Source of the DNA: Lachnospiraceae bacterium
GTDB lineage: Bacteria > Bacillota > Clostridia > Lachnospirales > Lachnospiraceae
Assembly: GCA_017623675.1 (NCBI GenBank)
Contig: JAGAOO010000024.1
Span: 1-64,000, forward strand
Direction: 5' to 3'
DNA: 64,000 nucleotides
The notes beneath the pieces were generated by a model. The model did not search any database. It was not told the DNA's origin and saw only the letters and a program-made list of their open reading frames with translations. The position numbers and the translations under genes are program-made. Positions 49,459 to 64,000 of this stretch are shown piece by piece (positions within the stretch are counted from its first letter, which is position 1; every line of letters starts with the position of its first letter).

Positions 49459-50508
49459 TTGAAAAGGAATCATAAATCTTGGAAATTATTAAGTATATGC
49501 CTGTTGGTATGTCTGGCGGCTTCCGGTTGCGGAAAGTCAGTTGAAACCATGCAAAGTGAAACCGAGGAGACAGCATCTTCTACGGAAGGAACAACGGAAA
49601 TGGTATTGCCAACCGGCCATGATGAATATCGTAAGGTATTAGAGGAGCTTCCTGCGGTACAGGAGCCTGCGAAGAACCCGGGAACCAGAGAACATTTTTC
49701 ATTTGTTGAAAACGATAAAACCTATGTATTCACGGAGACGGAGAATCTCTGGTTATATAGTCAGTCGTTAACCGGTACCTTAAAAACTACCTTTGTATTA
49801 AATGAGAAAGACTATAAGGTAGTAATCAGTATCCCGGAGCAGGAGAAACTGGCTGAGTGGAAGCCGGAAGAGTACACTTCGGTTTATAAAGATGATTCTG
49901 TGGAAATCTATCGGCAGGAGGATACAGAGGAAGTAAGCGAAGAAGAACCTATGTATGTCACTGTGTTGGATCTGACTTATGAAGTGACCGGCTGGCAGGA
50001 ATTAGTGAATAAAAAGGTTCTTACACTAAGTCAGTTATATGAAGATTTGGCACAGCTGGGGACTGCAATTGTTCCCACAGAAGAAAAGGAAGCAGTGAGT
50101 GATGTATTGACTGCCATGGGAGCAGTACCGGTATTTGAAGACTATTGTATTGCTTTTCGGGAGGATATGGCCTATTCCGGTTATATCTTCTGTTCGCCCA
50201 ACAAAGGAAATCTGGATTATGATGATGTGGATATTCTGTTATCCTTTGTTATTCCGGAGTGGAAGGATTATGCAACCATATGTATAGAAGATGTTCCGGA
50301 TTATCAGGATCGGTTAGAGGATACCGGTGAAAGCTTTGACGGGCATCCGATTCTGGCTGATTATAATGGGGAATTGAAATATTTCCTGATTGGCGAGGAC
50401 GGTAAGTGTATTTATTTATATGGAGTGCCAAAGAATACAGAAGGATATTCCAATAATTTTTCGGCAAAAGAAGCTGCATATATTTTTGAAGTAGTATTAA
50501 CAAAGTAA
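49459..50508 (+). CDS. uncharacterised lipoprotein
   Basis: This protein of about 349 residues is not recognised. It has a lipoprotein signal (MKRNHKSWKLLSICLL, then CLAASGC as lipobox, Cys about residue 24), a Ser/Thr/Glu-rich linker, and two mixed alpha/beta regions (about 65-170 and 185-345) with many acidic residues. I chose the TTG at 49459 because it gives a compact signal and a GAGG about nine bases upstream; a TTG at 49441 is possible. It follows aspS and precedes a terminator at the convergent border with GH26. Confidence 0.6.
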   Translation: MKRNHKSWKLLSICLLVCLAASGCGKSVETMQSETEETASSTEGTTEMVLPTGHDEYRKVLEELPAVQEPAKNPGTREHFSFVENDKTYVFTETENLWLYSQSLTGTLKTTFVLNEKDYKVVISIPEQEKLAEWKPEEYTSVYKDDSVEIYRQEDTEEVSEEEPMYVTVLDLTYEVTGWQELVNKKVLTLSQLYEDLAQLGTAIVPTEEKEAVSDVLTAMGAVPVFEDYCIAFREDMAYSGYIFCSPNKGNLDYDDVDILLSFVIPEWKDYATICIEDVPDYQDRLEDTGESFDGHPILADYNGELKYFLIGEDGKCIYLYGVPKNTEGYSNNFSAKEAAYIFEVVLTK

Positions 50509-50528
50509 AAATTAAAATTATGATAGAA

Positions 50529-50556
50529 CAGGGGCTGTGCAAATACACAGCCCCTG
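50529..50556. terminator. hairpin at the lipoprotein/GH26 convergent border
   Basis: CAGGGGCTGTG (50529-50539) and CACAGCCCCTG (50546-50556) form an 11-bp stem. The T runs on either side are weak, but position between convergent genes fits a shared terminator. Confidence 0.65.
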
Positions 50557-50563
50557 AAACTAT

Positions 50564-51499
50564 TTACATTTTAATAGAATAATTACTTTGATACATATCC
50601 CTCAGACAGGTATCATAATTGTGTTCTTCGGTCAGGCAGAATTCCTTGGACCATGTCATATAATATGCCCAAGGAATCCGGCTTTTTTCCAACATGGATA
50701 TATCAGGAATGACACCTACCTCAGCCAGAGCAGCTACCTTATGACAGCCGGTATTGGCAATTAATTCTTCATATTCTTCCTTATAATCCGTGATGGTATG
50801 GGGCGACACATAGACATCCCGACTGATTACATCCACATAGTCATCTCCGGGATATCCCTCCTTGGCAGGAGAATTCCATACCCATAACAGATGATTTAAC
50901 TGCTTCTCATGAACATAATAATCAAACATTAACTTATATAATTCTCTGCCAACAGCATCTCCTTTGGAACCCCACCAGAACCAGTCACCATCTGCTTCGT
51001 GAAAAGGTCTCCAAAGAACAGGAATCTGTTCCTGCTGGAATCGTCGGAGCTCCTCAGCAATGATATCTAAGTCATGGAAGAAGGCTTCCCGTTCCGGTGT
51101 GTCGTCAATCAGTACTTGGCTTGGATCAAAGTCCGTATGCCGGGAATAAAAACTTTTATCTCGTCCACCGATAGGAGAGAACCAGTGAAAGCAGATACTT
51201 ACAATTCCATTGGTAGTTTTTGCCCATTCAATAGCAGTTTCTACCGTGTGTTTATTTTCTTCCACTTCCGTCAGACATTCTTCGGAAGCATCTTCATAGT
51301 TAATATTAGGAGAATAGGATAACAGCTCAAATCCCTGCAGCTTCGGGTATGCTCCGGTTAATTCATAAATGTGTGTCCGTTCTTCCATTGGAACCGTTTG
51401 GGTATGTTGTCCGGTAATAATCTTGTTTCCGGCTGTGTCATATAGATATTGAAGCAGTTCACAGGCTTCCTTTGTTGCATGTTTGTTTACAGGCATCAT
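50564..51499 (-). CDS. GH26 family beta-mannan hydrolase, cytosolic
   Basis: This 311-residue enzyme is a GH26 protein. The acid/base Glu is in VLWRPFHEADGDWFWWG (about residue 165), and the nucleophile Glu in ALAEVGVIPD (about residue 255). There is no signal peptide, so it acts on imported oligosaccharides, probably cutting manno-oligosaccharides to mannobiose. I chose the ATG at 51499, eight bases after GGAGG. It follows the epimerase gene by 16 bases in one operon, a pairing known for mannan catabolism: GH26 with a cellobiose 2-epimerase making mannosyl-glucose. Confidence 0.88.
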   Translation of the reverse strand: MMPVNKHATKEACELLQYLYDTAGNKIITGQHTQTVPMEERTHIYELTGAYPKLQGFELLSYSPNINYEDASEECLTEVEENKHTVETAIEWAKTTNGIVSICFHWFSPIGGRDKSFYSRHTDFDPSQVLIDDTPEREAFFHDLDIIAEELRRFQQEQIPVLWRPFHEADGDWFWWGSKGDAVGRELYKLMFDYYVHEKQLNHLLWVWNSPAKEGYPGDDYVDVISRDVYVSPHTITDYKEEYEELIANTGCHKVAALAEVGVIPDISMLEKSRIPWAYYMTWSKEFCLTEEHNYDTCLRDMYQSNYSIKM

Positions 51500-51515
51500 A
51501 ATAGTTTCCTCCATC

Positions 51516-52679
51516 TTATGATATACGCTGAATGATTTCTAAGCACATTCTTCCGTTGTGATATGGACATTTCCAAGGCTCAACGATTGGTAAACGATTG
51601 GAAGGCATACCGTCTGCATCTACCTCAGAATACCATTCAGAATTCGGTCTTGGGTCAATGAGATGGTCTTCAATGTATTGCCAGATATCCTCGGCAGCCT
51701 GTTTGAAACGGACATCTCCGCATTTCTGATAAGCATTGTAGAAGCCAATAATTGATTCGCACTGTACCCACCAGATACGGCTGGTTAATACAACACCCTT
51801 TTCACATTCAGCCATAACAGAATGGTTTTCGTAAGCAACCTTGTAGATTTGTTCTGTTAAATCCATAATCATTGGTGCCATTCGGTCAGACAGTTCTTTA
51901 TCATTTAATACGCTTAAGGCACGGTCAATCAGCCAGGTTGCTTCAATGTCATGTCCATAAGAATGCAGGTCAATAATGGAATTCATATCAGCATCAAAGA
52001 ATACTTCCAGACGGTGTAATTCAGGGTTATATACTGTATTTAAGAATTCAGCAGTTGACCAGTATAACCGTTCCCGTACCTCCTGATTCTTGCTGACGCG
52101 GTACAACTCGGTATAGGCTTCACAAACGTGGAGCAGAGTATTCATGGTCTTGTCAGCAATTACATTGTTCTCGGATAATTTATCATTTACATTTGGAACA
52201 AAGTCCTTGGTATAGGATTCTCCATAGCCATCTCCCAATCGGCACTTGCTTTCAATTACATGGAATAAATCCATTGCAAGCTCTAAAGCTTCTTTATTGC
52301 CGGAAGCATCATAGTAAGAAGACAGGGCATAGATTGCAAATGCCTGATTATAGGTATGTTTGGTAGAATCGTCGATTTTTCCGTCGTAGGTCATAGACCA
52401 GTAGATGCCACCCTGTTCCTGATCCAGACAATAGGTTTTCAAAAAGGCATAAGCATGGTCTGCATATGGCAGGACAGAAGAATCTTTCGTGGTTAAATAC
52501 ACATTGGAAAAGAACCACAAAATTCGGCTGTTTAAGATGCAGCCCTTGATTGCTTTCTTATCTAATTTCAAATCAAAGTCCAGCAAACCATAGTATCCGC
52601 CATATTCCTTATCAATCATTCCCTTCCAGAAAGGAAGAATACAGGTATTCAGATTATTTGTAACACGTTCTTTTAACAT
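51516..52679 (-). CDS. cellobiose 2-epimerase-like (AGE family) enzyme
   Basis: This 387-residue protein has the AGE family (alpha/alpha)6-barrel pattern: FWKGMIDKEYGGYYGLLDFD at the start, CILNSRILWFFSNVY, KHTYNQAFAIYALS with the catalytic-type His/Tyr, HSYGHDIEATWLI, and WWVQCESIIGFYNAY, with a terminal EPWKCPYHNGRMCLEI. These signatures match cellobiose/mannobiose 2-epimerases rather than renin-binding proteins. It is first in its operon, divergent from the AraC regulator, with GGAGG eight bases before the ATG. Confidence 0.9.
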   Translation of the reverse strand: MLKERVTNNLNTCILPFWKGMIDKEYGGYYGLLDFDLKLDKKAIKGCILNSRILWFFSNVYLTTKDSSVLPYADHAYAFLKTYCLDQEQGGIYWSMTYDGKIDDSTKHTYNQAFAIYALSSYYDASGNKEALELAMDLFHVIESKCRLGDGYGESYTKDFVPNVNDKLSENNVIADKTMNTLLHVCEAYTELYRVSKNQEVRERLYWSTAEFLNTVYNPELHRLEVFFDADMNSIIDLHSYGHDIEATWLIDRALSVLNDKELSDRMAPMIMDLTEQIYKVAYENHSVMAECEKGVVLTSRIWWVQCESIIGFYNAYQKCGDVRFKQAAEDIWQYIEDHLIDPRPNSEWYSEVDADGMPSNRLPIVEPWKCPYHNGRMCLEIIQRIS

Positions 52680-52864
52680 AATTATTTCCTCCGTTGTTTA
52701 TTATTTATTTTCATTATAATCCCAGAGAATGGAATATCTATAACAGAAGAATCAAAAAATAGAACAAATCTCTATTTTTAAAATTGATATTCTGCATAAT
52801 TATTGATAAAATATATAAAACCAAAGAAAAAATCACATGAAAGAAAATAGGGAGAAAATATTAT

Positions 52865-53734
52865 ATGGCTGGATTGTTTGAATATATTGATGTTATGAAT
52901 ACAAGCTATCAGATTTATATGGAGGAGGTGCCGAATCGGGAGTTTCGGGTGACGGGACACTGGCACTACTTTGTAGAGATTCTTTTTGTCACTAAGGGGG
53001 AAATTCAGGTGGATTGTGGAAATTATCGGTATACCCTTCATGTAGGAGATGTAATCGTTCTTCCACCTAAGATGTTGCATAGAATTCAGCCCTGTGGAGA
53101 ATTGCCGATTCATTATGCAGTTGTTAAGTTTGATTTGAATGCAATTCGGATTCCGGGGGTATATCTGCCTAAGATACGGAAAACATTGTCTGGTGTGCAG
53201 GAAAAGCATGCAATGCTTTTTCTGGAGGCAGAACAGCGTCGTTATGGTTTGGGAGCCTGTATATTACATTGTTTAGAGGAATTGCAAGAGAAACAGTTTG
53301 GTTACGAGCTGAATATCTATTCTTATTTGTCAACGATGCTGGTACAGATGATACGATTATGGGAAGAACAGGGGAATGGCGATGTGATTGGAGAAGAGAA
53401 GGAAATGCCGGAAACCTTCTTTGATAATCTCCTGGAATATATGGATGCACATGCCTATGAGAATATTCGTGTGCAGGAATTAGCGAATCGCTGTGGCATG
53501 AGTTATTCTAATTTTGCAAAAGTATTTAAACAGCAATTTGGGCGTTCCTGCAAAGAATATATCGAATATATTCGTATCTCTAAAGCAGAGGAGCTGGTGT
53601 TGTATAGTGATTATGAAATCAGCTACATTGCACAGGAAACCGGCTTCGCCGATACCAGCCATTTTATCCGAATCTATAAGAAATTCAAAGGAGAAACGCC
53701 CAAACAGGCCAGAATGAAAGCTTCCGGCAAATGA
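52865..53734 (+). CDS. AraC family transcriptional regulator with cupin domain
   Basis: This 289-residue protein has an N-terminal AraC-type cupin (about residues 25-100, HWHYFVEILFVTKGEIQVDCG) that senses sugar and two C-terminal helix-turn-helix motifs (about 190-285, RVQELANRCGMSYSNFAKVFKQ and IAQETGFADTSHFIRIYKKF). It is divergent from the epimerase-GH26 operon, so it is the likely activator. The 185-base shared region is AT-rich; on the minus side a TATAAT (in GGGATTATAATG) suits an activator-dependent promoter without a good -35. Confidence 0.92.
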   Translation: MAGLFEYIDVMNTSYQIYMEEVPNREFRVTGHWHYFVEILFVTKGEIQVDCGNYRYTLHVGDVIVLPPKMLHRIQPCGELPIHYAVVKFDLNAIRIPGVYLPKIRKTLSGVQEKHAMLFLEAEQRRYGLGACILHCLEELQEKQFGYELNIYSYLSTMLVQMIRLWEEQGNGDVIGEEKEMPETFFDNLLEYMDAHAYENIRVQELANRCGMSYSNFAKVFKQQFGRSCKEYIEYIRISKAEELVLYSDYEISYIAQETGFADTSHFIRIYKKFKGETPKQARMKASGK

Positions 53735-53746
53735 AACGGTTCAATA

Positions 53747-54841
53747 CTATATAATTTCCAACAAGGTGTTAACCAATTTATCATCATCCTCCGGTTTCAG
53801 GAAACAGAACCGAATGTAGTCCGGTCCTAATCCTATGAAATTAGAACAATCCCGAATCATGAGGCCTTTCTTGATACAGTGTTCAAACACCATTGCAGAG
53901 GTCAGTCCTTCTTTCTGAAGCTTTATTAATACAAAGTTAGTTGCCGGAGGAATGATTTGAATGGTTTTTCTGGTTTTTAATGCGGAACAAACCAGACTTT
54001 GCTCCTGTAATATTAAGTCTCTGGTTGCCTGCATATAATCGGTATCTGTGAACATCACCGTACCTGCATAAGCAGCAAGGGAGCTGACAGACCATGGATT
54101 GGCATGCTTCTTTATAAAACGCAGCAGTTTGTCATTGGAAGTGCAGGCATAACCGAATCGCAGTCCCGGAGCGGCGAAGAACTTGGAAACACCGCGAAGT
54201 ACAATCAAATTGTTGAATTTCTTTACCAATGGGGTGGCAGAAATCGTAGGCACATCCTTGACAAATTCCACATAAGTTTCGTCAATCAGAACAAAAGTAG
54301 AAGTTTCCTTACATTTTTCAACAATTTCCTGTATCTGGCTGATGGTGATGCAGGTAGAGGTTGGGTTGTTTGGATTGCAGAGAATGACCATATCAACGGA
54401 ATCATCTATTTGTTTACATAAGTCCTTCGGGTCTAATTGAAAATTAGTATCCTCCGTCAGTACATAGTCAATGACTTCACTTTTGATTGCTTTTAAATCC
54501 CGTTTATATTCGGAATAAGTCGGCTCCACCACAATGGTTTTCTTCGGTTTTACGGTGGTAATAAAGGTTACAATTAATTCGGTTGCACCACTGCCGGGAA
54601 GAACATGGGCGGCGTCTACGCCGGTATAAGCATGAATGGCTTCCCGTAATTTCGTATATTCCCGATCCGGGTATTCGGTCAGGATATCCAGATTTGCCTG
54701 TAAAGCTTCCTTTAATTTCGGTGATAATCCAAGCGGATTTACATTAGAAGCAAATGGACGAATCTCTTCTCTGCGAATATGATATAACTTTTCTACTTTC
54801 TCTAAATCACTACCATGAAATTGATCGGTTGGCTGTAACAT
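53747..54841 (-). CDS. HisC/CobD-like class I/II aminotransferase
   Basis: This 364-residue PLP enzyme begins QFHGSDLEKVEKLY and has FASNVNPLGLSP, TEYPDREYTKLR, LCNPNNPTSTCI and VLIDETYVEF, with the Schiff-base lysine in RGVSKFFAAPGLRFGY. It is close to histidinol-phosphate aminotransferases and L-threonine-O-3-phosphate decarboxylases (CobD). No histidine or cobalamin genes are near, so the substrate is open. It converges on the AraC gene, 12 bases apart. Confidence 0.85.
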   Translation of the reverse strand: MLQPTDQFHGSDLEKVEKLYHIRREEIRPFASNVNPLGLSPKLKEALQANLDILTEYPDREYTKLREAIHAYTGVDAAHVLPGSGATELIVTFITTVKPKKTIVVEPTYSEYKRDLKAIKSEVIDYVLTEDTNFQLDPKDLCKQIDDSVDMVILCNPNNPTSTCITISQIQEIVEKCKETSTFVLIDETYVEFVKDVPTISATPLVKKFNNLIVLRGVSKFFAAPGLRFGYACTSNDKLLRFIKKHANPWSVSSLAAYAGTVMFTDTDYMQATRDLILQEQSLVCSALKTRKTIQIIPPATNFVLIKLQKEGLTSAMVFEHCIKKGLMIRDCSNFIGLGPDYIRFCFLKPEDDDKLVNTLLEII

Positions 54842-54881
54842 AAAAATATCCCCTCTCCTTCTTTCCTAATTCGACAAACTC

Positions 54882-54890
54882 TGTTATAAT
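54882..54890 (+). promoter_or_regulatory. predicted extended -10 promoter for the DUF5717 operon
   Basis: TGTTATAAT matches an extended -10 (TGn-TATAAT); the -35 position, TTTCCT 17 bases upstream, is weak. A start near 54897 would leave a leader of about 50 bases. Confidence 0.5.
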
Positions 54891-54947
54891 CATTTATAGT
54901 TGTTATTATTATATCCAGTGAAGGAAGGATTGGCAAGGGTGTTGTAG

Positions 54948-57900
54948 ATGAAAGAGAAAGTAGAACAGTATGCAAAAGGCGAATACAATGTGAGTCGTCC
55001 TAAGGTGGTTGTATCCGCCGATCATTTACAACTGAATATAGAGGCAGGCTCTGTTTATCAGGGAACTATTGAAGTACATACCGACAATGATCGACGTATC
55101 AAGGGAATGATTTATGATAATCGGTACTTATTCAAGATAGAACCTCATAATTTTATTGGTAAAGCCCAGACGGTTGAATTAACCTTTGATGCAAGAAAAT
55201 GGGAAAAGGGTGAGAAGCTGTCAGGAATCATTTATCTGGTGACAGATGGAGGAGAATTTCGAATCCCATACGAAATTGAAATAACAGCACCGGCAGTGGA
55301 TACTTCCATTGGTGAACTGAGTGATATGTTTCAATTTGCCAGTTTAGCAGAAAGTAATTGGAATGAAGCAGTACGTATCTTTACCTCGCCGGAATTCAAG
55401 AGGACGTTCTTAGAACGGGAGCCGATGTACGCAAGGGTATATGAAAGCCTTACCAGAAGCCTTTCAGCCAGTCAGGCAATGGAAGAGTTTTTAATCTATA
55501 CACATAAGAAGCGTTCCTTGTCTCTTGAGGTGACAGACCGCAAACAGCAGCTTTCCTTTCATCCGGCAGCAGAAAAGCACAGCGTTACAGTAAGCCGGAA
55601 TACATGGGGATATTTGAATGCAGAAGTGCATTCGGATGCCCGGTTTTTACAACCAATTAAGCGTTATATCAGTACAGAAGATTTCATTGGCAATAAATAC
55701 GCACTGGAATATATGATTTTTCCTGAACTGATGGAAGAAGGCACCAACACCGGACATATTACCATTGAGAATATATATCAGAAGATAGTGATAGATGTGG
55801 TGGTGAATCAGGCGGCAGAACATCGTGTAGAACCGCCACGATTATTTACCAATCATCACATGATAAAGGTACATCAGCATAGTCTGATAACAAACTATCT
55901 GGATTTTCGAACCGGCAAATTAGAATTGGACAGCTATGTGGATAAGACTCTGTATGCCCTGCGGAATCTGGTGCAGTATTGTCGGGAGGAGCCAATTTAC
56001 CGGTTGGGAATTCTCCATATGAATATTCTTGCCGGTAATGAAAGCATGGCAGAAGAGGAATTTAAGAGAATTGATGCGGACAAGGATAAGATGGTGTCAG
56101 GCACCAGGGAAGCTTGTTATTATGCATATCTGAAAGCATTGGCATTCAAGGATACTGCTACGATTGAACAGGCAAAACAGCAGATTCGTGCAACCTTTGA
56201 AGCAGAAGATGAAAAATTATTCTATTTCTGGCTGTTAATCTTTCTGGATACCTCAGAGGATACTGAAAAGGGACCGATTTATGCAGAAATACAAAGAATG
56301 TATGATAAGGGAATTCATAGCCCGATATTATATTATGAAATCTGTGATATATTGAATCATGAGCCACTGATGCTTCGGAGATTAAGCGGACTGGAAATTG
56401 CCTCAATTCGCTGGGGGATGCAGCATGATTATGTGTCGGAGGACGTGATACGGATTTGCGTGGATTTGGCAGGAAAAGAACATGGATTCCAGCCGAATCT
56501 GTTCCGGTTATTACAGGTAATAGATAAGCAGACACCATCGGAAGATGCACTGCGAACCATTTGTGGAATGCTGATTCGGGCAAATAAGGCAGAATCGGAG
56601 TATCATGATTATTTTGTCCGCGGTGTGGAGCAGGGCTTTAAGTTAATTGGTATTTATGAATGTTATATCCGCAGTATGGATATGAAGAAGTATGCACCGA
56701 TACCGGAGCCGGTACTTCGATATCTGGCATATAACAATACCTTAACTGATTATGAACAAGGGTATGTATATGCCAACCTCATTAAGAATAAGAGTCTGTA
56801 TTCGGGTCTCTACGGCGAGCTGGCACCGACCATTGAGAATTATATGGAAAGTCAGATTGTAAAAGGAGTTATCCATGAATTCTTATTGGTGATTTATAAG
56901 GAGTTCTTACATCCTGACCATGTGAATCCGAAGTATGCGGCCAGACTGACCAACATTATGTTCAAACGGAGACTGACTTGCAGTAATTCGAATATGAAAG
57001 CAGTTATTGTGAGTCACAGGGAACTGGTGGAGGAACAGCAGGTACCGATTGTGGATGAAACTGCCTATATAGATGTTGTAACGGATTCTGCGGTTATTAC
57101 TTTAATTGATACCAAGGGCAACCGATACACCAGTACAGTATCCTATCGGTTAGAACGTCTGGTGGATGCAAAGATATATCTGGATACCTGTCATCGGTAT
57201 AATCCTTCCGATGCAAAGGTATTAGCCTATATTTACAGTCATATGGACCACAAGCATCTGCAGGATGCGAGAGATGTGAATCAGGCAAGAGATGTATTGG
57301 AATGCAATGATATCAGTTATGAAATCCGGCAGCAGGCATTGCTTCAGATTATTGAATATTATCTGGAGAACTACGATGGAGACATTCTGGAAAAATATCT
57401 GTTACAGGTAGATTTGGAATATTTAGATAAGCTGCATAGTGCAGAAATTATCTCCGGTTATATCATGCGGGGGATGAATCGAAAGGCATTTGAAGCAATT
57501 AAGCGGTTCGGGTATGGTGATGTGGAGATTTCCCGCTTGCTTCGATTGGCTTCTTATATTGTGACAGATACGGATATTTTAGGAGATGAAGCTTTAACGT
57601 CTTTGTGTGTTTATCTGTATCAGAAGGGACAGTATAACGACAGAACCATTCAATATCTGGTATTCCAGTATAAGGCAGACACCAAGGAACTTTCGAAGCT
57701 GTGGGAAACGGCTATGGTGGTTCTGGGAGAGGCAAGAGAATTAGAAGAAAATATTCTGGCACAACTGATTTTCTCGGATGAGAATCTGGATAATGCCATG
57801 GATATCTTCCGGTCTTATTATCAGGGAAGACATCGGGGAATGGTAACCAAGGCATTTCTACGGAAGATGGCATATCAGTATTTTATCCGGGAAGAATGGG

Positions 57901-58517
57901 TACCGGATTCTGTATTTGACTATCTGATGCAGGAAATTGCCAAGGGAGAAATAGAGGATGATATCAGTCATGGAGCAGTACTATGGCATTTATCAAAAAT
58001 CGTACGGTTAAATGAGGAAGAGACTGCATATGTGACAAAGACGGTCAAACGGTTCTTGAATCGGGGAATTGTCCTTCCGTTCTTTAAATCCTTTTTGGAG
58101 TTTGTGGACTTGCCACAGGAGGTATTCTTAAAAACCTATCTTGTTTACAAGGGTGAAGAACGACAGAACGTTGTGGTCAATTACAGTGTGGGAACCAGTG
58201 AATTACAGACTCTGGATTTCAAACCTTGCCGTATGGAGGAGCGAATACCGGGTTACTATGTACAGGAATTCATTGTATTCCACGGAGAGCAACTGTTGTA
58301 TCATTTCAGTCAGGAGTATACCGGGCCGGTAACCCTGATGGAAAGCGATAGTATTCGAAGCGATGCATACAGTCAGGAGGAACCGGAGAGTCGGTTTGAA
58401 CGTTTGAATCAGATGTTAATCAGTCAGGAAATGCGGGATGCAGAAACGCTGACCGAATCCATGGAGGACTATATGAAGTATAGTCATGTGTTTGAAGAAA
58501 TGATGCGGATATTGTAA
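54948..58517 (+). CDS. DUF5717 family large solenoid protein
   Basis: This 1189-residue cytosolic protein matches the DUF5717 family of Lachnospiraceae and has no known function. It has two N-terminal beta-sandwich, Ig-like regions (about 15-120 and 195-300, e.g. VSADHLQLNIEAGSVYQG and KLSGIIYLVTDGGEFRI), a long all-helical part (about 330-1040) with TPR/HAT-like repeating units, and a C-terminal beta domain (about 1050-1140). No signal peptide or membrane segment. It heads a four-gene operon; DUF5716 starts 14 bases after its stop. The fold suggests a scaffold or client-binding partner for the Hsp70-like protein (inference). Confidence 0.8.
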   Translation: MKEKVEQYAKGEYNVSRPKVVVSADHLQLNIEAGSVYQGTIEVHTDNDRRIKGMIYDNRYLFKIEPHNFIGKAQTVELTFDARKWEKGEKLSGIIYLVTDGGEFRIPYEIEITAPAVDTSIGELSDMFQFASLAESNWNEAVRIFTSPEFKRTFLEREPMYARVYESLTRSLSASQAMEEFLIYTHKKRSLSLEVTDRKQQLSFHPAAEKHSVTVSRNTWGYLNAEVHSDARFLQPIKRYISTEDFIGNKYALEYMIFPELMEEGTNTGHITIENIYQKIVIDVVVNQAAEHRVEPPRLFTNHHMIKVHQHSLITNYLDFRTGKLELDSYVDKTLYALRNLVQYCREEPIYRLGILHMNILAGNESMAEEEFKRIDADKDKMVSGTREACYYAYLKALAFKDTATIEQAKQQIRATFEAEDEKLFYFWLLIFLDTSEDTEKGPIYAEIQRMYDKGIHSPILYYEICDILNHEPLMLRRLSGLEIASIRWGMQHDYVSEDVIRICVDLAGKEHGFQPNLFRLLQVIDKQTPSEDALRTICGMLIRANKAESEYHDYFVRGVEQGFKLIGIYECYIRSMDMKKYAPIPEPVLRYLAYNNTLTDYEQGYVYANLIKNKSLYSGLYGELAPTIENYMESQIVKGVIHEFLLVIYKEFLHPDHVNPKYAARLTNIMFKRRLTCSNSNMKAVIVSHRELVEEQQVPIVDETAYIDVVTDSAVITLIDTKGNRYTSTVSYRLERLVDAKIYLDTCHRYNPSDAKVLAYIYSHMDHKHLQDARDVNQARDVLECNDISYEIRQQALLQIIEYYLENYDGDILEKYLLQVDLEYLDKLHSAEIISGYIMRGMNRKAFEAIKRFGYGDVEISRLLRLASYIVTDTDILGDEALTSLCVYLYQKGQYNDRTIQYLVFQYKADTKELSKLWETAMVVLGEARELEENILAQLIFSDENLDNAMDIFRSYYQGRHRGMVTKAFLRKMAYQYFIREEWVPDSVFDYLMQEIAKGEIEDDISHGAVLWHLSKIVRLNEEETAYVTKTVKRFLNRGIVLPFFKSFLEFVDLPQEVFLKTYLVYKGEERQNVVVNYSVGTSELQTLDFKPCRMEERIPGYYVQEFIVFHGEQLLYHFSQEYTGPVTLMESDSIRSDAYSQEEPESRFERLNQMLISQEMRDAETLTESMEDYMKYSHVFEEMMRIL

Positions 58518-58531
58518 ATAGGAGAGTAGAC

Positions 58532-59794
58532 ATGCAGAAATTTTATTTGGGTATGGATGTCTGTGCTGAAAACACCCAGTTGAGTTTTTTTAATCAGCAG
58601 ACAAAGGAACCGGAATCTATTTGTCAATTGAATACAGTCGATACATATCTGCTTCCGAATGTGGCATTTTTTGGTGAAGAAACAAAACGCTGGTATATTG
58701 GAAGTGAAGCACTGGAACATCGGTTTCATCAAAAAGGAACCATGTTAGAACAGGTAGTGGAGAAATTGGAATCTACGGAACGTATGATATTCCAGGAGGA
58801 AACCTATACCTATGAGGATGTGCTGCTGGTAATTCTGAAAGGGCATATTATGGATTTTCTGAACCGGTATGAGGATGCCCAGATTGAACGACTGGTAATC
58901 GCTGTTTATAAATATTCCAATGCCCTGTTTCGGGTTCTTCATATGTTACAGGATGAATTGGGGTTATACGAGGATAAGTTTTTTATTATCGGACACACCA
59001 GTGCCTATCTGCATTTTATCTTCCAGCAGCCGGAGAGTCTGCGAAATAACAGTGTAGGTTTGTTTGATTACGGTCCGGAAGGACTGGATTTTTACCGGGT
59101 AGATATTGCCAGACGGACAACGCCACAGGTAGTAACTGTGGTTCATAAAGATTTTCGGAATCGTATGGGATATTACCGCGTTTATGATGATAAAAAGGAA
59201 CTGGATCAACGGTTTTTAGAGGTGGTTCAGGAGGTTTTGAAGGAAGTTTACATGTCGGCGGTATATTTGACAGGCTGTGGCTTCACAGAGATGTGGGCAA
59301 ATGCTTCCCAGAACGCATTGTGTAATGGCAGAAGGGTGTTTGTAGGACAGAACATCTATACGAAAGGCGCCTGCTATGCGGCATACATCGGCTCGCATGT
59401 CATTAATCCAAACAAGTATATTGTAAATGCGGAGGACATGGTGCATAGTGATGTGGGAATTTTAAGTGGTGGTACTTCCAATACCTTTATTCCTATTGCC
59501 CGGGGGGGCAGGGAATGGTATAACATGCGTGGGAGAATTCAGGTCTGCTTAGATGATACCAATCGTGTAGAATTAGTATATAAAAACCACTACAATCAGG
59601 AAGCTATGCGGGAAATTATTGAAATTCATGGACTGCCTTCCAGACCGAATAAGACAACAAGGCTTTCTCTGGAGGTAGAAATGTATAGTGGAACAAGAGG
59701 TGCAGTGGTAATTCGGGATGAGGGCTTTGGTAAGCTGTATCCCACAACCAATAAGATATACCGGAAAGAATTTTCACTGGAAAGGGAAGGATAA
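58532..59794 (+). CDS. DUF5716 family Hsp70/actin-like protein
   Basis: This 420-residue protein matches DUF5716 and keeps the plan of the Hsp70/actin ATPase fold: a phosphate-1-like loop YLGMDVCAENTQLSFF (residues 4-19), a phosphate-2-like loop VGLFDYGPEGLDFYRVD (about 175-191) and an adenosine-like loop VYLTGCGFTEMW (about 245-256). All three are divergent from DnaK, and it stops after the ATPase domain, without a classical peptide-binding domain. A short C-terminal beta region follows (RIQVCLDDTNRVELVYKN). It is 14 bases after DUF5717 and 5 before the next gene. Confidence 0.8.
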   Translation: MQKFYLGMDVCAENTQLSFFNQQTKEPESICQLNTVDTYLLPNVAFFGEETKRWYIGSEALEHRFHQKGTMLEQVVEKLESTERMIFQEETYTYEDVLLVILKGHIMDFLNRYEDAQIERLVIAVYKYSNALFRVLHMLQDELGLYEDKFFIIGHTSAYLHFIFQQPESLRNNSVGLFDYGPEGLDFYRVDIARRTTPQVVTVVHKDFRNRMGYYRVYDDKKELDQRFLEVVQEVLKEVYMSAVYLTGCGFTEMWANASQNALCNGRRVFVGQNIYTKGACYAAYIGSHVINPNKYIVNAEDMVHSDVGILSGGTSNTFIPIARGGREWYNMRGRIQVCLDDTNRVELVYKNHYNQEAMREIIEIHGLPSRPNKTTRLSLEVEMYSGTRGAVVIRDEGFGKLYPTTNKIYRKEFSLEREG

Positions 59795-59799
59795 CACTT

Positions 59800-60633
59800 A
59801 TGGGAAAGATAATACTTTGTGAAGCAAGACAAGCTGTAATTCCATATGTATTCACGAATACCAAGGTAGAAGTATATTCCTATGAAGAACTTTGCTTTTA
59901 CATTTATAATAATGTGGCATTGCTAAACCCGGAACAGTTTCAGGGAAAGCTGGTACAATGGCTGAAAACAGAGCTTGGTATGGAGGAACTGGCCAATAAA
60001 GTGATGGAACAGTTGGCGACAGAAGCACCTTTCATGGATATTCTGGTTACAATCCTGTCTGCAGGGGAATATTATGAGACTGCAGAAATTCGCCAGTTTG
60101 TGGATAAGCAGGAATTGGTCGCACTGTTGCCTCAAGAGGAGAAGGTTAAGCTGAAAGCAGACAGTTTTTTGATGTATAAGCGCTTGTTGAAAGCTATTTC
60201 CTATTATGATGAGATTCTGAGACAGCAGGATTCCATTGAGGATAAGAGGTTCTTAGGGGATGTCTATCATAACAAGGGCGTGGCATTGGCGAAGAATATG
60301 GAATTGACGAAGGCAAAGCTGTGCTTTTTGGAAGCTTATAATCACAATGAGAAGAAGAGCTCATTAGAGGCATATATTACCTTGCGGTTGTTGGAAGAGT
60401 CCAGAGATATAGTGGCACAGGAAGCAGCGACACTGGGTATGGAGGAAGTAGATTTTGCACGGATTGCCATGCTGACGGAGGATGCAGTAGAGGATTCTAT
60501 GAATACAGCAGTGTATACCCGTTACCGCAAGGCGATTTATAATATGGAACACGGAGATCAGGAAGCATTTAATCAGAGAGTGGATATGCTGTTAAACCAA
60601 TGGAAAGAAGAATTCCGTGAACAGGTGATTTAA
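59800..60633 (+). CDS. helical-repeat protein of the DUF5716/5717 operon
   Basis: This 277-residue protein is not recognised by name. It is almost all helical, with TPR-like units around 120-200 (LLKAISYYDEILRQ, LGDVYHNKGVALAKN, AKLCFLEAYNHN). The N-terminal third has a mixed region. No membrane or signal segment. It starts 5 bases after DUF5716 and its TAA directly abuts the next ATG, so the four proteins are probably made in fixed ratio. An adaptor role is inferred from fold and context. Confidence 0.6.
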   Translation: MGKIILCEARQAVIPYVFTNTKVEVYSYEELCFYIYNNVALLNPEQFQGKLVQWLKTELGMEELANKVMEQLATEAPFMDILVTILSAGEYYETAEIRQFVDKQELVALLPQEEKVKLKADSFLMYKRLLKAISYYDEILRQQDSIEDKRFLGDVYHNKGVALAKNMELTKAKLCFLEAYNHNEKKSSLEAYITLRLLEESRDIVAQEAATLGMEEVDFARIAMLTEDAVEDSMNTAVYTRYRKAIYNMEHGDQEAFNQRVDMLLNQWKEEFREQVI

Positions 60634-61791
60634 ATGGGATTATGGAAACAGTTGAGCCGTTTATGGAAACGGTCGGGAAAACAATCAGATACAGAATTAG
60701 AATCCATGGATGATTCTGAACAGGAAAGACAGATAGAAGAATCAGAGCTGGCACATCATTTAAGTCAAATTGTGGATTCTACTTATGAGATGGAGGATTT
60801 GAAACGGGAATATGAGCTTGTGACCTCCTACTTTTCGGATATTCAGAAAATCGAGCAAATGGAACCAATGCAACAGCGGAGGCTGGAGGATGATGCCGGA
60901 AAAATCCTGATGCTGGAGAAGAACCGGAAGGAATACCAGCATGCACCAAAGAGGATATCATCGGAACGGTATCAGTTATTTATGCGGTTAGAAGAGGAAG
61001 TGCCCAATGCCATTCACAGACTTGAGGAATTAGAAGATATGCGGAGCAAGATTAAGCGGGACTTAGAATATCTGGAAGGGGAAAAGGGAGCAATCAAATA
61101 TGAGGAAGAAGAACTGCAAAACCGGCAGACGACCTTGCGGAATATTGCAGTTGTTATTGGCGTGCTTACTGTTCTTACAGTAATAGCCTGTCTGTTCCTG
61201 AATCTTCAATACGAACTTGAACTGGCTGGTGCCGGAGCAGGAATTGCTATTGTTGCAGTGATTGTTGAATTCTTCCTGTTTCTTGGTTATAATCGTGCCA
61301 ATTATGACAGAAAGGTTTGTTATCAAAAGCATAATCGGGCAATCCAGTTACAGAATAAGGTAAAGATTAAATGGTTAAACAATACCAATAATTTGGATTT
61401 TCTTTATACAAAGTATGAGATAAACAGCCGCAAGGAACTGGAATATGAATGGGAGCAATATCGGCTGACAGTAGAGGAAGAAGAACGTTACCAGAAGAAT
61501 ATCGGGGACCTACGGGTATATCAGGAAGAAGTAGTAGCGAATCTGAAGCAGGCCGGTGTATGGGATGCTGAAATCTGGCTCCAGCAGATTCTGGCACTGG
61601 TAGATAAACGGGAAATGGTTGAGGTAAAGCATTCTCTGAATGTCCGTCGGCAAAAGCTACGGGAACGAATGAAACAGAACGAAGAAGCCAGACAAAACAG
61701 TCTGGTTTGTGTAAAGGGTATTCTGACAGAACATCCGGAATTAAAGGAACAGGCAAGAGAAGTGCTGACCTCTTATCATATTGCAGTATAA
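60634..61791 (+). CDS. coiled-coil membrane protein of the DUF5716/5717 operon
   Basis: This 385-residue protein has coiled coils (about residues 20-170), two adjacent transmembrane segments (about 172-190, VVIGVLTVLTVIACLFL; and 197-218, GAGAGIAIVAVIVEFFLFL) and a second coiled-coil region (about 225-385). Both coiled parts would face the same side, most likely the cytosol. It abuts the previous stop and is followed by a terminator-like hairpin. It would tether the operon's soluble parts to the membrane (inference). I do not recognise a named family. Confidence 0.6.
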   Translation: MGLWKQLSRLWKRSGKQSDTELESMDDSEQERQIEESELAHHLSQIVDSTYEMEDLKREYELVTSYFSDIQKIEQMEPMQQRRLEDDAGKILMLEKNRKEYQHAPKRISSERYQLFMRLEEEVPNAIHRLEELEDMRSKIKRDLEYLEGEKGAIKYEEEELQNRQTTLRNIAVVIGVLTVLTVIACLFLNLQYELELAGAGAGIAIVAVIVEFFLFLGYNRANYDRKVCYQKHNRAIQLQNKVKIKWLNNTNNLDFLYTKYEINSRKELEYEWEQYRLTVEEEERYQKNIGDLRVYQEEVVANLKQAGVWDAEIWLQQILALVDKREMVEVKHSLNVRRQKLRERMKQNEEARQNSLVCVKGILTEHPELKEQAREVLTSYHIAV

Positions 61792-61820
61792 ATGGGTGCA
61801 TAATGAGTATGCACTCATTT
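61790..61820 (+). terminator. hairpin ending the DUF5716/5717 operon
   Basis: AAATGGGTGCAT (61790-61801) pairs with ATGCACTCATTT (61809-61820), one wobble, overlapping the stop codon. The T run is short (TTTGTT), so it is a moderate terminator. Confidence 0.6.
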
Positions 61821-61847
61821 GTTATGTCAGGAAGAACAAAAGCTTGC

Positions 61848-61876
61848 TTGACAATTGATAAGGTACGATATATAAT
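61848..61876 (+). promoter_or_regulatory. consensus sigma-A promoter of the thiamine uptake operon
   Basis: TTGACA (61848-61853) and TATAAT (61871-61876) are exact consensus hexamers with the ideal 17-base spacer. Transcription would begin near 61883, at the 5' edge of the riboswitch. Confidence 0.92.
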
Positions 61877-61885
61877 TGCCTAGAA

Positions 61886-61994
61886 ATCAGGAGTGCTTAA
61901 GGAATTAGGCTGAGAAATGACATAATCCTGTCATTAATCCTTTGGGGAAACCCATGACCTGATCCGGATAATGCTGGCGGAGGGAGATGTTGAT
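61886..61994 (+). ncRNA. TPP riboswitch (THI element)
   Basis: The aptamer has GGCTGAGA (61908-61915), which binds the pyrimidine ring of thiamine pyrophosphate, and ACCTGATCCGGATAAT (61957-61972) followed by GGCGGAGGGA, the pyrophosphate-binding arm. ATCA (61886-61889) and TGAT (61991-61994) can close P1. A terminator hairpin follows, so high TPP should stop transcription before the uptake genes. Confidence 0.94.
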
Positions 61995-62018
61995 AAGCAA
62001 ATAATGTGCGATTTTTTC

Positions 62019-62052
62019 ATCCCCTTTCAAAGCAGTTTGGAAGGGATTTTTT
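62019..62052 (+). terminator. riboswitch expression-platform terminator
   Basis: ATCCCCTTTCAAA (62019-62031) pairs with TTTGGAAGGGAT (62036-62047), with one bulged C and one wobble, followed by a T run to 62052. It is the likely off-switch of the TPP riboswitch. Confidence 0.85.
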
Positions 62053-62130
62053 AATGCATTAGAGTAGTGGTTTCATTTGGTACTTGTGCACAGGACCAAA
62101 CAAAGTGAAATCTTAAAGGAGGAAATGAAG

Positions 62131-62427
62131 ATGAATGCAAATGTAGCCATTCAGGTATTGCCGGGTGTGTCAACGGATAAAGAAGTTGTACGGATTGTGG
62201 ATGAAGTCATTGACTATATCAAAAGTACCGGAGTTACCTACTATGTTGGTCCTTGCGAAACTGCAATGGAGGGTGACTATGAAGAATTAATGGAAATTGT
62301 GAAGCAATGTCAATATATTGCGATTCAGGCTGGCTGTCCAAGTGTGATGAGCTATGTAAAAATCACATATAAGCCGGAGGGAGAGGTATTGACCATAGAT
62401 GAAAAGACAACGAAGCATCATCAGTAA
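62131..62427 (+). CDS. thiamine-binding protein, YkoF/MTH1187 (DUF77) type
   Basis: This 98-residue protein has the MTH1187/DUF77 pattern (VAIQVLPGVSTDKEVVRIVDEVIDYIKSTG read in parts, YVGPCETAMEGDYEELMEIVKQC). Such proteins bind thiamine or a pyrimidine precursor and occur with HMP ABC transporters. It is the first gene after the TPP riboswitch. I chose the ATG at 62131, with AAAGGAGG eight bases upstream; an ATG at 62125 is too close. It overlaps the permease gene by 29 bases. Confidence 0.85.
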   Translation: MNANVAIQVLPGVSTDKEVVRIVDEVIDYIKSTGVTYYVGPCETAMEGDYEELMEIVKQCQYIAIQAGCPSVMSYVKITYKPEGEVLTIDEKTTKHHQ

Positions 62428-63169
62428 TTGCATACCGGTATTTGTCATTTTGGGAATTCTGGTGATATGGCAAATGATTTGTATCACTGGTCTGGTACCG
62501 GGCTATATGCTGCCTTCTCCAATTGAAGTGATACAGGCATTTATTGCGGATTTTCCGGCATTAATGAGGCATTCCAGAGTAACCTTACTGGAAGCAGCAT
62601 TGGGCTTAGTCTGCGGTGTGACCTTGGGCTTCCTGTGTGCAGCATTGATGGATAGCTTTGAACCGGTAAGAAAAGGGTTATATCCGATTCTGGTTCTGAC
62701 ACAGACGGTACCGCCGGTTGCCATAGCCCCACTTTTAATTTTGTGGTTTTCCTATGGGATTGCACCGAAGGTAGTGTTAGTGGTATTGGTATCATTTTTC
62801 CCAATTGCAGTTGGACTGTTAGAAGGATTTCAATCCGTAGACCCGGATATGATTCGTCTTATGCGTTCCATGAAAGCCAATCGGTGGCAGATTTTCTGGC
62901 ATGTGAAATTTCCCAATGCCTTAGGAGAATTCTTTTCCGGCTTGAAGATTGCGGTTTCCTATTCTGTGGTTGGTGCTGTGATTGCAGAATGGCTGGGTGG
63001 CTTGGAAGGACTGGGCGTATACATGACACGTGTGAAAAAGGCCTATGCTTATGATAGAATGTTTGCTGTTATTTTTCTGGTATCGGCGATTAGCTTATTG
63101 CTGATGGCGATTGTTAAGGTGGCACAGTATCAGGCTATGCCTTGGACTCATTGCCAAAAGGAAATTTGA
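62399..63169 (+). CDS. ABC transporter permease, ThiX-like
   Basis: This 256-residue membrane protein has about six transmembrane segments and the binding-protein-dependent permease (EAA) motif near FWHVKFPNALGEFFSGLKIAVSYS. It belongs to the SsuC/TauC/ThiX-like family and, by context, imports the HMP precursor of thiamine. It overlaps the DUF77 gene by 29 bases and precedes the binding-protein gene. No ATPase lies in the window; the ThiZ-type gene is expected just beyond the end. Confidence 0.86.
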   Translation: MKRQRSIISNCIPVFVILGILVIWQMICITGLVPGYMLPSPIEVIQAFIADFPALMRHSRVTLLEAALGLVCGVTLGFLCAALMDSFEPVRKGLYPILVLTQTVPPVAIAPLLILWFSYGIAPKVVLVVLVSFFPIAVGLLEGFQSVDPDMIRLMRSMKANRWQIFWHVKFPNALGEFFSGLKIAVSYSVVGAVIAEWLGGLEGLGVYMTRVKKAYAYDRMFAVIFLVSAISLLLMAIVKVAQYQAMPWTHCQKEI

Positions 63170-63247
63170 ACAGACAAACGAAGAAACAAATAGATGTCAC
63201 TACGATAAGTGGTAGGGATATGAATGAGAAAAGGAGATTGAGACGAA

Positions 63248-64000
63248 ATGAAACGATTCAAAAAAATAGTAAGCGCAGTGTTAGTGACAGCATTAGCATT
63301 TTCATTATGTGCTTGTAGTGGTAATGCAGAAAGCAATAATGCGGGTGAGAATAATGCGGGTGATGGCGAAAAGACGGAGATTACATTCGTGTTAGACTGG
63401 GCACCGAATACAAACCACACAGGCTTGTATGTTGCACAGGAACTTGGATACTATGAAGAGGCAGGCTTGGATGTAACAATTGTTCAGCCACCGGAGGATG
63501 GAGCAACCATGATGGTAGCTTCCGGACAGGCACAATTCGGTATTGATTTTCAGGATTATTTAGCACCGGTATTTACTTCTGAGGACGAAATGCCTGTAAC
63601 AGCAGTAGCAGCGATTATCCAGCATAATACCTCCGGTATTATTTCCCTGAAGGAAGACGGAATTACCTCTCCGGCAGGAATGGAAGGCAAGAATTATGCA
63701 ACCTGGGGCTTGGAGCTTGAACAGGCAATGATAAAGAATGTTGTAGAAGCAGACGGTGGAGATTATGATAAGGTGAATCTGATTCCGGAATACGTGACAG
63801 ATGTTCCATCAGCATTGCAGCAGGACATTGATGCAGTCTGGGTATATTATGCATGGGATGGTATCTCTACAAAGCAGGCAGGATTAGAAACCAATATGTT
63901 TTATTTTAAGGATATTACACCGGAATTTGATTATTACAGTCCTGTAATTATCGCTAATACGGATTTTCTGGAAGAAGATGAAGAAGCTGCAAAGGCATTC
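63248..64000 (+). CDS. ABC transporter substrate-binding lipoprotein, ThiY/NMT1-like (partial)
   Basis: The frame is open from the ATG at 63248 to the window end (251 residues, 3' end missing). It has a lipoprotein signal (LAFSLCAC, Cys about residue 21), a Gly/Asn/Glu linker, and the NMT1/THI5-like start FVLDWAPNTNHTGLYVAQELGYY, with QFGIDFQDYLAPVF and the WGLELEQAMIKN segment. NMT1-like proteins bind the pyrimidine HMP or its formyl precursor. AAGGAG lies 11 bases before the ATG. It completes the riboswitch-controlled import operon with the permease upstream. Confidence 0.9.
   Translation, partial: MKRFKKIVSAVLVTALAFSLCACSGNAESNNAGENNAGDGEKTEITFVLDWAPNTNHTGLYVAQELGYYEEAGLDVTIVQPPEDGATMMVASGQAQFGIDFQDYLAPVFTSEDEMPVTAVAAIIQHNTSGIISLKEDGITSPAGMEGKNYATWGLELEQAMIKNVVEADGGDYDKVNLIPEYVTDVPSALQQDIDAVWVYYAWDGISTKQAGLETNMFYFKDITPEFDYYSPVIIANTDFLEEDEEAAKAF

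What the first reader, a model, noticed from the sequence alone, without database searches (positions are those of the whole stretch)
54948..61791. Four-gene operon built on an Hsp70/actin-like ATPase with unknown function
Seen: four genes in line with gaps of 14, 5 and 0 bases, encoding a 1189-residue beta-sandwich and solenoid protein (DUF5717), a stand-alone Hsp70/actin-like ATPase domain lacking a peptide-binding domain (DUF5716), a helical-repeat protein and a coiled-coil protein with two central membrane segments. Known: DUF5716 and DUF5717 are uncharacterised families that I recall from Lachnospiraceae. Inference: the large protein supplies the client- or scaffold-binding part the Hsp70 lacks, the repeat protein is the adaptor, and the last gene anchors the assembly at the membrane. 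The near-zero spacing argues for a fixed-ratio complex. No known chaperone or cytoskeletal gene is adjacent.
Basis: partly seen in the sequence, partly recalled or inferred. Interest (0 to 1): 0.72.

Follow-up and report, generated by a model that had tools for sequence, protein, structure and literature searches.

The report
Decayed Hsp70 operon of Lachnospiraceae
A row of genes carried by almost every sampled member of one large family of gut bacteria appears to be the shrunken remnant of a second Hsp70 chaperone machine, in which the Hsp70 kept a client-binding part but lost the residues that burn ATP.

Summary
The DUF5716 protein (gene B) is not an ATPase domain without a peptide-binding domain: profile comparison aligns it end to end with Hsp70, nucleotide-binding domain plus the beta part of the substrate-binding domain, without the lid. 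And it is probably no ATPase: K70 and E171 are missing in 141 of 141 homologues, T199 in 139.

Its origin can be traced. In other families of the order, homologues of DUF5717 (gene A, usually split in two genes) open a longer cluster: A1, A2, Hsp70-1, a GrpE-fusion, Hsp70-2, Hsp70-3, an Hsp70 with a vWA domain, and TPR gene C. B groups with Hsp70-2, which also lacks K70 and T199.

The operon is near-universal in its family (DUF5716 in 145 of 150 genomes). Order A-B-C is nearly fixed, B and C are one reading frame in 5 of 141 loci, and D follows C in only 67 of 125. Best reading: a non-cycling, Hsp70-derived client-binding scaffold. No structure could be computed (server busy in every attempt), and function is untested.

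The parts
54948..58517 (+). Gene A, 1189 aa: DUF5717_N (residues 1-876) and DUF5717 (880-1185); large protein without membrane segment; made of two separate genes (about 400 + 900 aa) in most loci read from other families
58532..59794 (+). Gene B, 420 aa: DUF5716; lidless Hsp70-like protein, probable pseudo-ATPase
58541..59428 (+). Part of B aligned with the Hsp70 nucleotide-binding domain (about residues 4-299; inner border approximate)
   Evidence: profile alignments
59429..59740 (+). Part of B aligned with the Hsp70 SBD-beta, ending in D-E-G-F-G (about residues 300-403; inner border approximate)
59800..60633 (+). Gene C, 277 aa: N-terminal part of about 100 aa without known family, then TPR repeats
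60634..61791 (+). Gene D, 385 aa: no known family, two central hydrophobic segments
61144..61284 (+). The two hydrophobic segments of D (residues 171-189 and 199-217)

Best explanation
The operon is the reduced, family-wide descendant of a second Hsp70 machine separate from DnaK. In other families of the order that machine has four Hsp70s, a GrpE-fusion (presumed exchange factor), a TPR protein and the two halves of DUF5717. In the window's family the DUF5717 halves are one gene (A), the Hsp70s with intact catalytic residues and the GrpE-fusion are not at the locus, and one decayed Hsp70 (B) remains with the TPR protein (C), in about half of the loci with a membrane protein (D). Shown by sequence: B is Hsp70-derived (NBD + SBD-beta, no lid), groups with Hsp70-2, lacks residues needed for hydrolysis, yet is under strong purifying selection; A-B-C stay together; B and C can be one reading frame. 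Inferred: B no longer cycles with ATP but is a constitutive, lidless binder of a peptide or partner protein; C's TPRs dock B onto the A solenoid; A is the large cytosolic scaffold; where D exists it ties the assembly to the inner face of the membrane. The client is unknown.
For: Hsp70 origin of B: profile of 34 B against PDB finds DnaK first, E 1.8e-5, with a second collinear piece in the SBD-beta in three of the five alignments shown; profile-profile with 11 Hsp70s probability 97.3, 390 columns, through the SBD-beta, TPR control 0.2; Hsp70-2 of G432 matches DUF5716_C (E 1.5e-26) and HSP70 (E 1.4e-17). Orthology: B and G400's Hsp70-2 form a clade 100/100 in two trees, next to the other Hsp70-2; a clade of B with own DnaK and two further own Hsp70s is rejected, p-AU 4e-6. 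Loss of catalysis: K70 and E171 in 0 of 141, T199 in 2, D201 in 7. Constraint: dN/dS of B 0.011-0.041 in the nine of ten pairs where it could be computed. Togetherness. Ancestral-type cluster: eight of ten extended loci show the whole series, GrpE in G432 and five of six further proteins tested, vWA in both Hsp70-4 tested. No second GrpE in the own genome.
Against: No structure model could be made. Nucleotide binding is not excluded, and ATP hydrolysis by other residues is not excluded. The SBD-beta pieces are only 2.8-4.1 bits each. B branches are long and the tree program warns of that. Direction of change (large cluster to small operon) is inferred, not rooted. G146 has A without B and C beside it, L126 (G020) has B without A and C beside it, G029 and G091 have neither domain. 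That A, B and C touch each other is inferred from gene order and fusions.
Confidence: 0.6

Rival explanations
1. B is a working ATP-driven Hsp70-like chaperone with unusual catalytic residues, A or C supplying what is missing.
For: D8 kept in 131, D194 in 95 and the first glycine of the adenosine motif in 140 of 141 B; strong constraint on B.
Against: K70 and E171 in 0 of 141, T199 in 2, D201 in 7; the GGG of the second phosphate loop is not conserved. No GrpE at the locus, one GrpE in the own genome, beside DnaK.
Confidence: 0.17
2. B is an actin-like filament or membrane-linker protein (MreB/FtsA/PilM kind) that organises a structure at the membrane through D.
For: Shared actin-like fold class; D is a membrane protein in about half of the loci; Hsp70-3 of G400 gives a weak PilM_2 match, E 0.004, below the cut-off.
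Against: Profile of B scores own DnaK at E 4e-12 while the two own MreB are not listed even at E 100; SBD-beta present; B groups with Hsp70-2; D absent from 58 of 125 loci.
Confidence: 0.07
3. The operon is a conflict or defence system of the Hsp70-bearing kind (as in Kaur et al. 2020).
For: Hsp70, GrpE, vWA and TPR parts occur together in the larger cluster, parts of which also occur in GAP1-N2 systems (passages of PMC7159879). In two of the ten extended loci CRISPR genes lie a few genes downstream: Cas3/Cas5/Csd1 in G442, Cmr2/Cmr3/RAMP in G432. Weak PADLOC hits for Hsp70-4 (PDC-M61B, E 4e-7) and for C of G432 (best E 4e-6).
Against: Near-universal distribution, one match in nearly all genomes (145 of 150), and divergence that tracks valyl-tRNA synthetase (Mantel r 0.59-0.60, 59 loci) point to vertical core inheritance; no PADLOC hit at E 0.01 for the four window proteins; no GTPase, nuclease or other effector domain among the seven G432 cluster proteins.
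Confidence: 0.08

Closest known systems
Hsp70/DnaK with GrpE
   Same: B aligns over NBD and SBD-beta; the related clusters of other families carry Hsp70s with intact residues and a GrpE domain.
   Different: B lacks the lid and hydrolysis residues. Four Hsp70s in one cluster, GrpE at the end of a 565-644 aa protein, no J-domain among the seven G432 cluster proteins, DUF5717 partner.
Pfam DUF5716_C (PF18980), DUF5717_N (PF18984), DUF5717 (PF18983)
   Same: These are the families of B and A.
   Different: Here DUF5716 is linked to Hsp70, and DUF5717_N is found beyond the window's family, usually split in two genes.
GAP1-N2 GTPase-centric systems with HSP70/GrpE (Kaur et al. 2020, PMC7159879; passages seen)
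   Same: HSP70 and GrpE next to TPR proteins; a subset with a second HSP70 described as lacking its peptide-binding domain.
   Different: No GTPase among the seven cluster proteins scanned; near-universal and vertical in one family rather than patchy; B retains an SBD-beta.
Lidless or non-canonical Hsp70 relatives (Hsp110-type, HscC, eukaryotic Stch; recalled, no call)
   Same: Hsp70-derived proteins that dropped parts or changed the cycle.
   Different: B also lost K70, E171 and T199 and is locked to DUF5717 and a TPR partner.

Membership tests
Hsp70 (by descent) | Sequence homology over the nucleotide-binding domain | tested here: met
Hsp70 (by descent) | Substrate-binding domain, beta part | tested here: met
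   profile-profile alignment runs to the end of the SBD-beta; weak second pieces; Hsp70-2 and Hsp70-3 of G432 match DUF5716_C there. Sequence level only
Hsp70 (by descent) | C-terminal helical lid | tested here: not met
   unfused B ends 14-33 (median 16) residues after the end motif, own DnaK 149
ATP-cycling chaperone | Catalytic residues D8, K70, E171, D194, T199, D201 (E. coli numbering, recalled) | tested here: not met
   131, 0, 0, 95, 2, 7 of 141
ATP-cycling chaperone | ATP binding and hydrolysis | not testable with these tools
   needs purified protein
DnaK-DnaJ-GrpE machine | GrpE partner at the locus | tested here: not met
   none of the four window proteins matches GrpE; one GrpE in the own genome, beside DnaK. 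Met in clusters of other families
actin-like filament protein (MreB/FtsA/PilM) | Closer to these than to Hsp70 | tested here: not met
   own MreB not listed at E 100, own DnaK E 4e-12; FtsA and PilM not tested directly
GAP1-N2 / MoxR-vWA conflict systems | GTPase or MoxR ATPase core with effector genes | tested here: not met
   no such Pfam match in the four window proteins or the seven G432 cluster proteins; genes further away not searched systematically

The most novel reading that the evidence does not exclude
One order of Firmicutes carries a second Hsp70 machine (four Hsp70s, one with a vWA domain, a GrpE-fusion, a TPR protein and the DUF5717 scaffold). In its largest sampled family the machine lost its motors and survives as a nearly universal pseudo-Hsp70 complex: an Hsp70 turned into a structural, ATP-independent client binder that became part of the family's core genome.
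Probability: 0.55. Interest if true: 0.8.

Novelty: new variant of a known kind. Interest (0 to 1): 0.67.

Why it matters
A near-universal operon of an abundant gut family is unannotated; such conserved, family-restricted genes are candidates for a lineage-specific core function. The larger cluster gives a handle that DUF5716 alone did not: Hsp70s with intact residues and their own GrpE domain, whose nucleotide cycle and clients can be assayed, next to the decayed relative. It also offers a natural series (Hsp70-1, -3, -4 intact; Hsp70-2 partly decayed; B more decayed) for asking what an Hsp70 does once its ATP cycle is gone.

Tried and rejected
Tried without result: profiles of A and D against PDB chains found nothing credible (best E 0.015 and 0.073). 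Literature, open-licence PMC only: DUF5716 gives one unrelated paper, a motif hit in human Max (passage seen); DUF5717 none; Lachnospiraceae signature proteins, one unrelated paper (listing seen); Hsp70/GrpE/vWA clusters (63), inactive Hsp70 paralogues (64) and DnaK/GrpE/Lachnospirales (93) none.

Rejected: that the longer A of some D-less loci holds D. In the six such A proteins looked at in this group (L040, L049, L052, L061, L081, L091) the extra 74-171 residues after residue 527 are an insert, acidic by eye, and no hydrophobic segment was found in these A proteins. D read through into glutamyl-tRNA synthetase in G626: taken as an accident of adjacency. The class-level DUF5717_N hit in G786 (E 8e-5, under the curated cut-off): its contig has no match to the A, B, C, D, GrpE-fusion or Hsp70-1, -3, -4 profiles at E 1e-5. 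Promoter-like sites: as many as in shuffles (21 against 21.2), so no promoter is claimed.

Not achieved: AlphaFold models of B (alignment A6) and A (alignment A7), and so no fold search.
Full report
1. What is there. Four genes in line on the + strand, A 54948-58517, B 58532-59794, C 59800-60633, D 60634-61791, with gaps of 14, 5 and 0 bases. A is DUF5717_N + DUF5717, B is DUF5716_C. Upstream and divergent is an aminotransferase gene near CobD/HisC; downstream follow a Thiamine_BP protein, a permease and an NMT1-like protein. No Rfam family reaches its gathering score in 50000-64000.

2. How widespread. DUF5716_C is in 145 of 150 sampled genomes of the window's own family (123 of 126 of the more complete ones), with one match in all but two of the 145 (G129, G137), and in none of 14 control genomes. 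In a phylum sample it is in 4 of 249, all four of the own family. Of the five family genomes without it, three (G098, G128, G146) have DUF5717_N and two (G029, G091) do not. In G098 and G128 gene A runs to the end of the contig; in G146 it stands without B and C next to it.

3. How conserved the order is. A lies directly before B in 136 of 141, and C directly after B, or fused to it, in 137 of 141. The four without C are three whose contig ends after B (L046, L054, L113) and L126, where B stands without A and C. B and C form one open frame of 684-723 aa in five loci (L116, L120-L123). B and C overlap in 88 of 132 unfused cases; median gaps are A-B 16.5, B-C -1, C-D 3. D follows C directly in 67 of 125 loci with at least 1.3 kb after C. 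In ten close pairs dN/dS is below 0.1 for every gene where it could be computed; for B it is 0.011-0.041 in nine pairs, many with near-saturated dS. Divergence of A, B and C follows that of a neighbouring valyl-tRNA synthetase (Mantel r 0.59-0.60, 59 loci, 0 of 999 permutations as high; such a gene was found near 64 of 141).

4. B is an Hsp70 without lid. A profile of 34 B proteins finds DnaK chains first in the PDB (best E 1.8e-5), and in three of the five alignments shown a second collinear piece lies in the SBD-beta (2.8-4.1 bits each, weak alone). Profile-profile comparison with 11 Hsp70s (three of the own genome, four Hsp70-1 and four Hsp70-4 of other families) gives probability 97.3, E 1.6e-11, over 390 columns, to the end of the SBD-beta; C against the same Hsp70s gives 0.2. 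A profile of the 141 B scores own DnaK at E 4e-12 (database size set to 10000), two window reading frames at E 16, and the two own MreB proteins not at all up to E 100. The lid is gone: the motif D-x-G-[FLY]-G is in 139 of 141 B, and unfused B end 14-33 residues (median 16) after it; own DnaK goes on for 149. So 'lacking a peptide-binding domain' does not hold at sequence level.

5. B lacks ATPase residues. On a MAFFT alignment with own DnaK (E. coli numbering recalled), of 141 B: D8 131, K70 0, E171 0, D194 95, T199 2, D201 7; all six in none (columns). Hsp70-1 (9 of 9), Hsp70-3 (9 of 9) and Hsp70-4 (7 of 7) keep all six. The nine Hsp70-2, G400's included, keep D8 in 9, D194 in 8, E171 in 1, and K70, T199 and D201 in 0. 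The K70 column is the least certain: 46 of 141 B have some lysine within three columns of it. Nucleotide binding may remain.

6. Where it comes from. DUF5717_N in the order: 145 of 295 genomes, 48 of them of the own family by my count of the listing, 97 of other families. In the class sample 10 of 245, nine of the own family and one weak hit under the cut-off; in the phylum sample 4 of 249, all own family. Twenty loci of other families were read. In 17 the two halves of DUF5717 are separate genes of roughly 400 and 900 aa (in L198 with other frames between them); in three (L192, L193, L195) they are one gene. In 19 of 20 at least one gene matching the B profile follows; L198 has none. For ten the downstream stretch was added. 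Eight show the whole series: A1-A2 (or fused), Hsp70-1 (557-561 aa), a 565-644 aa protein, Hsp70-2 (496-528), Hsp70-3 (542-551), Hsp70-4 (691-696), C (386-390); two of these, G432 and G463, are close relatives. G577 stops after Hsp70-3. G400 has the series with a short fourth protein (279 aa), Hsp70-4 and C each in two frames, then D and a valyl-tRNA synthetase. The 565-644 aa protein ends in a GrpE domain: E 3e-13 in G432, and four of five further ones; G496's gives no Pfam match, though it aligns with the rest. G400's 279 aa protein also matches GrpE. Hsp70-4 carries a vWA domain in both copies tested, G432 and G438, and C of G432 is a clear TPR protein (E 5e-26). Hsp70-2 of G432 matches both DUF5716_C (E 1.5e-26) and HSP70 (E 1.4e-17); G400's Hsp70-2 matches DUF5716_C at E 3e-74 and not HSP70 at E 0.01.

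7. Trees. In trees of 55 and 24 rows B and G400's Hsp70-2 form a clade with 100/100 support; the split of B plus all Hsp70-2 from the other Hsp70s has 100/100 and 100/99. The trees are unrooted. A clade of B with own DnaK and the two further own Hsp70s is rejected, p-AU 4e-6. Branches in B are long and the program warns of that. In the 55-row tree no own Hsp70 groups with Hsp70-1, -3 or -4, and the own genome has a single GrpE, beside DnaK. A gene like the window's aminotransferase lies directly upstream in 90 of 131 own-family loci tested and in six of the ten other-family clusters, so the place in the genome is probably old. One genome of another family, G556, has A-B-C without Hsp70s between them.

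8. How it may work (inference). An Hsp70 without lid and without hydrolysis should not trap clients in a nucleotide-timed way; an SBD-beta on a non-cycling NBD would be a constitutive, exchangeable binder of an extended segment, possibly of one partner rather than of many clients. C's TPRs, in one frame with B in five loci, would hold B to A. By hydropathy A has no membrane segment in 131 of 138 copies, B in 138 of 141, C in 135 of 137, and D has one or two in 68 of 68, so the assembly is probably cytosolic with an optional membrane tie. The GrpE-fusion and three intact Hsp70s of the other families suggest that the ancestral machine cycled. What it acts on is unknown.

9. Against a defence role stand the near-universal distribution and vertical signal; for it stand the kind of domains and the CRISPR genes found a few genes downstream of the cluster in G442 (Cas3, Cas5, Csd1) and G432 (Cmr2, Cmr3, RAMP), two of ten extended loci; the other eight were not scanned for such genes. 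PADLOC gave nothing at E 0.01 for the four window proteins; of four cluster proteins two gave weak hits.

10. Known or new. The parts are known kinds (Hsp70, GrpE, TPR, vWA). In the searches I found no description of the cluster or of DUF5716 as an Hsp70. The nearest published arrangement that I saw, in passages only, is the HSP70/GrpE theme of GAP1-N2 systems in Kaur et al. 2020, which differs in core and distribution. I file it as a new variant of a known kind: membership of B among Hsp70s by descent is supported; membership among ATP-cycling chaperones was tested on residues and not met.

Noticed in passing
L189-L208 with downstream stretches L209-L218: Clusters of four Hsp70s, a GrpE-fusion and a TPR gene next to split DUF5717 in other families of the order; a subject in itself.
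   Followed up: partly
L218 4741-9703 (-) and L209 6238-9764 (-): CRISPR genes (Cas3/Cas5/Csd1; Cmr2/Cmr3/RAMP) a few genes downstream of the Hsp70 cluster in two of the ten extended loci.
   Followed up: partly
L040, L049, L052, L061, L081, L091 (gene A): Gene A carries a 74-171 residue insert, acidic by eye, after residue 527 of the window's A; these loci have no D detected.
   Followed up: partly
L231 2261-5113 (-): D is in one reading frame with glutamyl-tRNA synthetase (950 aa).
   Followed up: partly
L063, L080: Records titled Bacteroidales and Bacteroides carry the operon at 45-46% identity in B; probably misnamed bins.
   Followed up: no
G000:C77:26237-27904 and G000:C22:90430-92079: Two further Hsp70s in the own genome; by eye a TPR-like gene lies before the first and a J-domain-like gene by the second.
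   Followed up: no
window 50564-52679 (-): Glycosyl hydrolase family 26 and GlcNAc 2-epimerase family genes, divergent from an AraC-type regulator at 52865-53734.
   Followed up: no
window 61792-62076: 285-base gap before the Thiamine_BP/permease/NMT1-like group, with a 12-of-12 promoter-like match at 61848-61876 and a terminator-like hairpin at 62022-62045 but no Rfam riboswitch at the gathering score.
   Followed up: no
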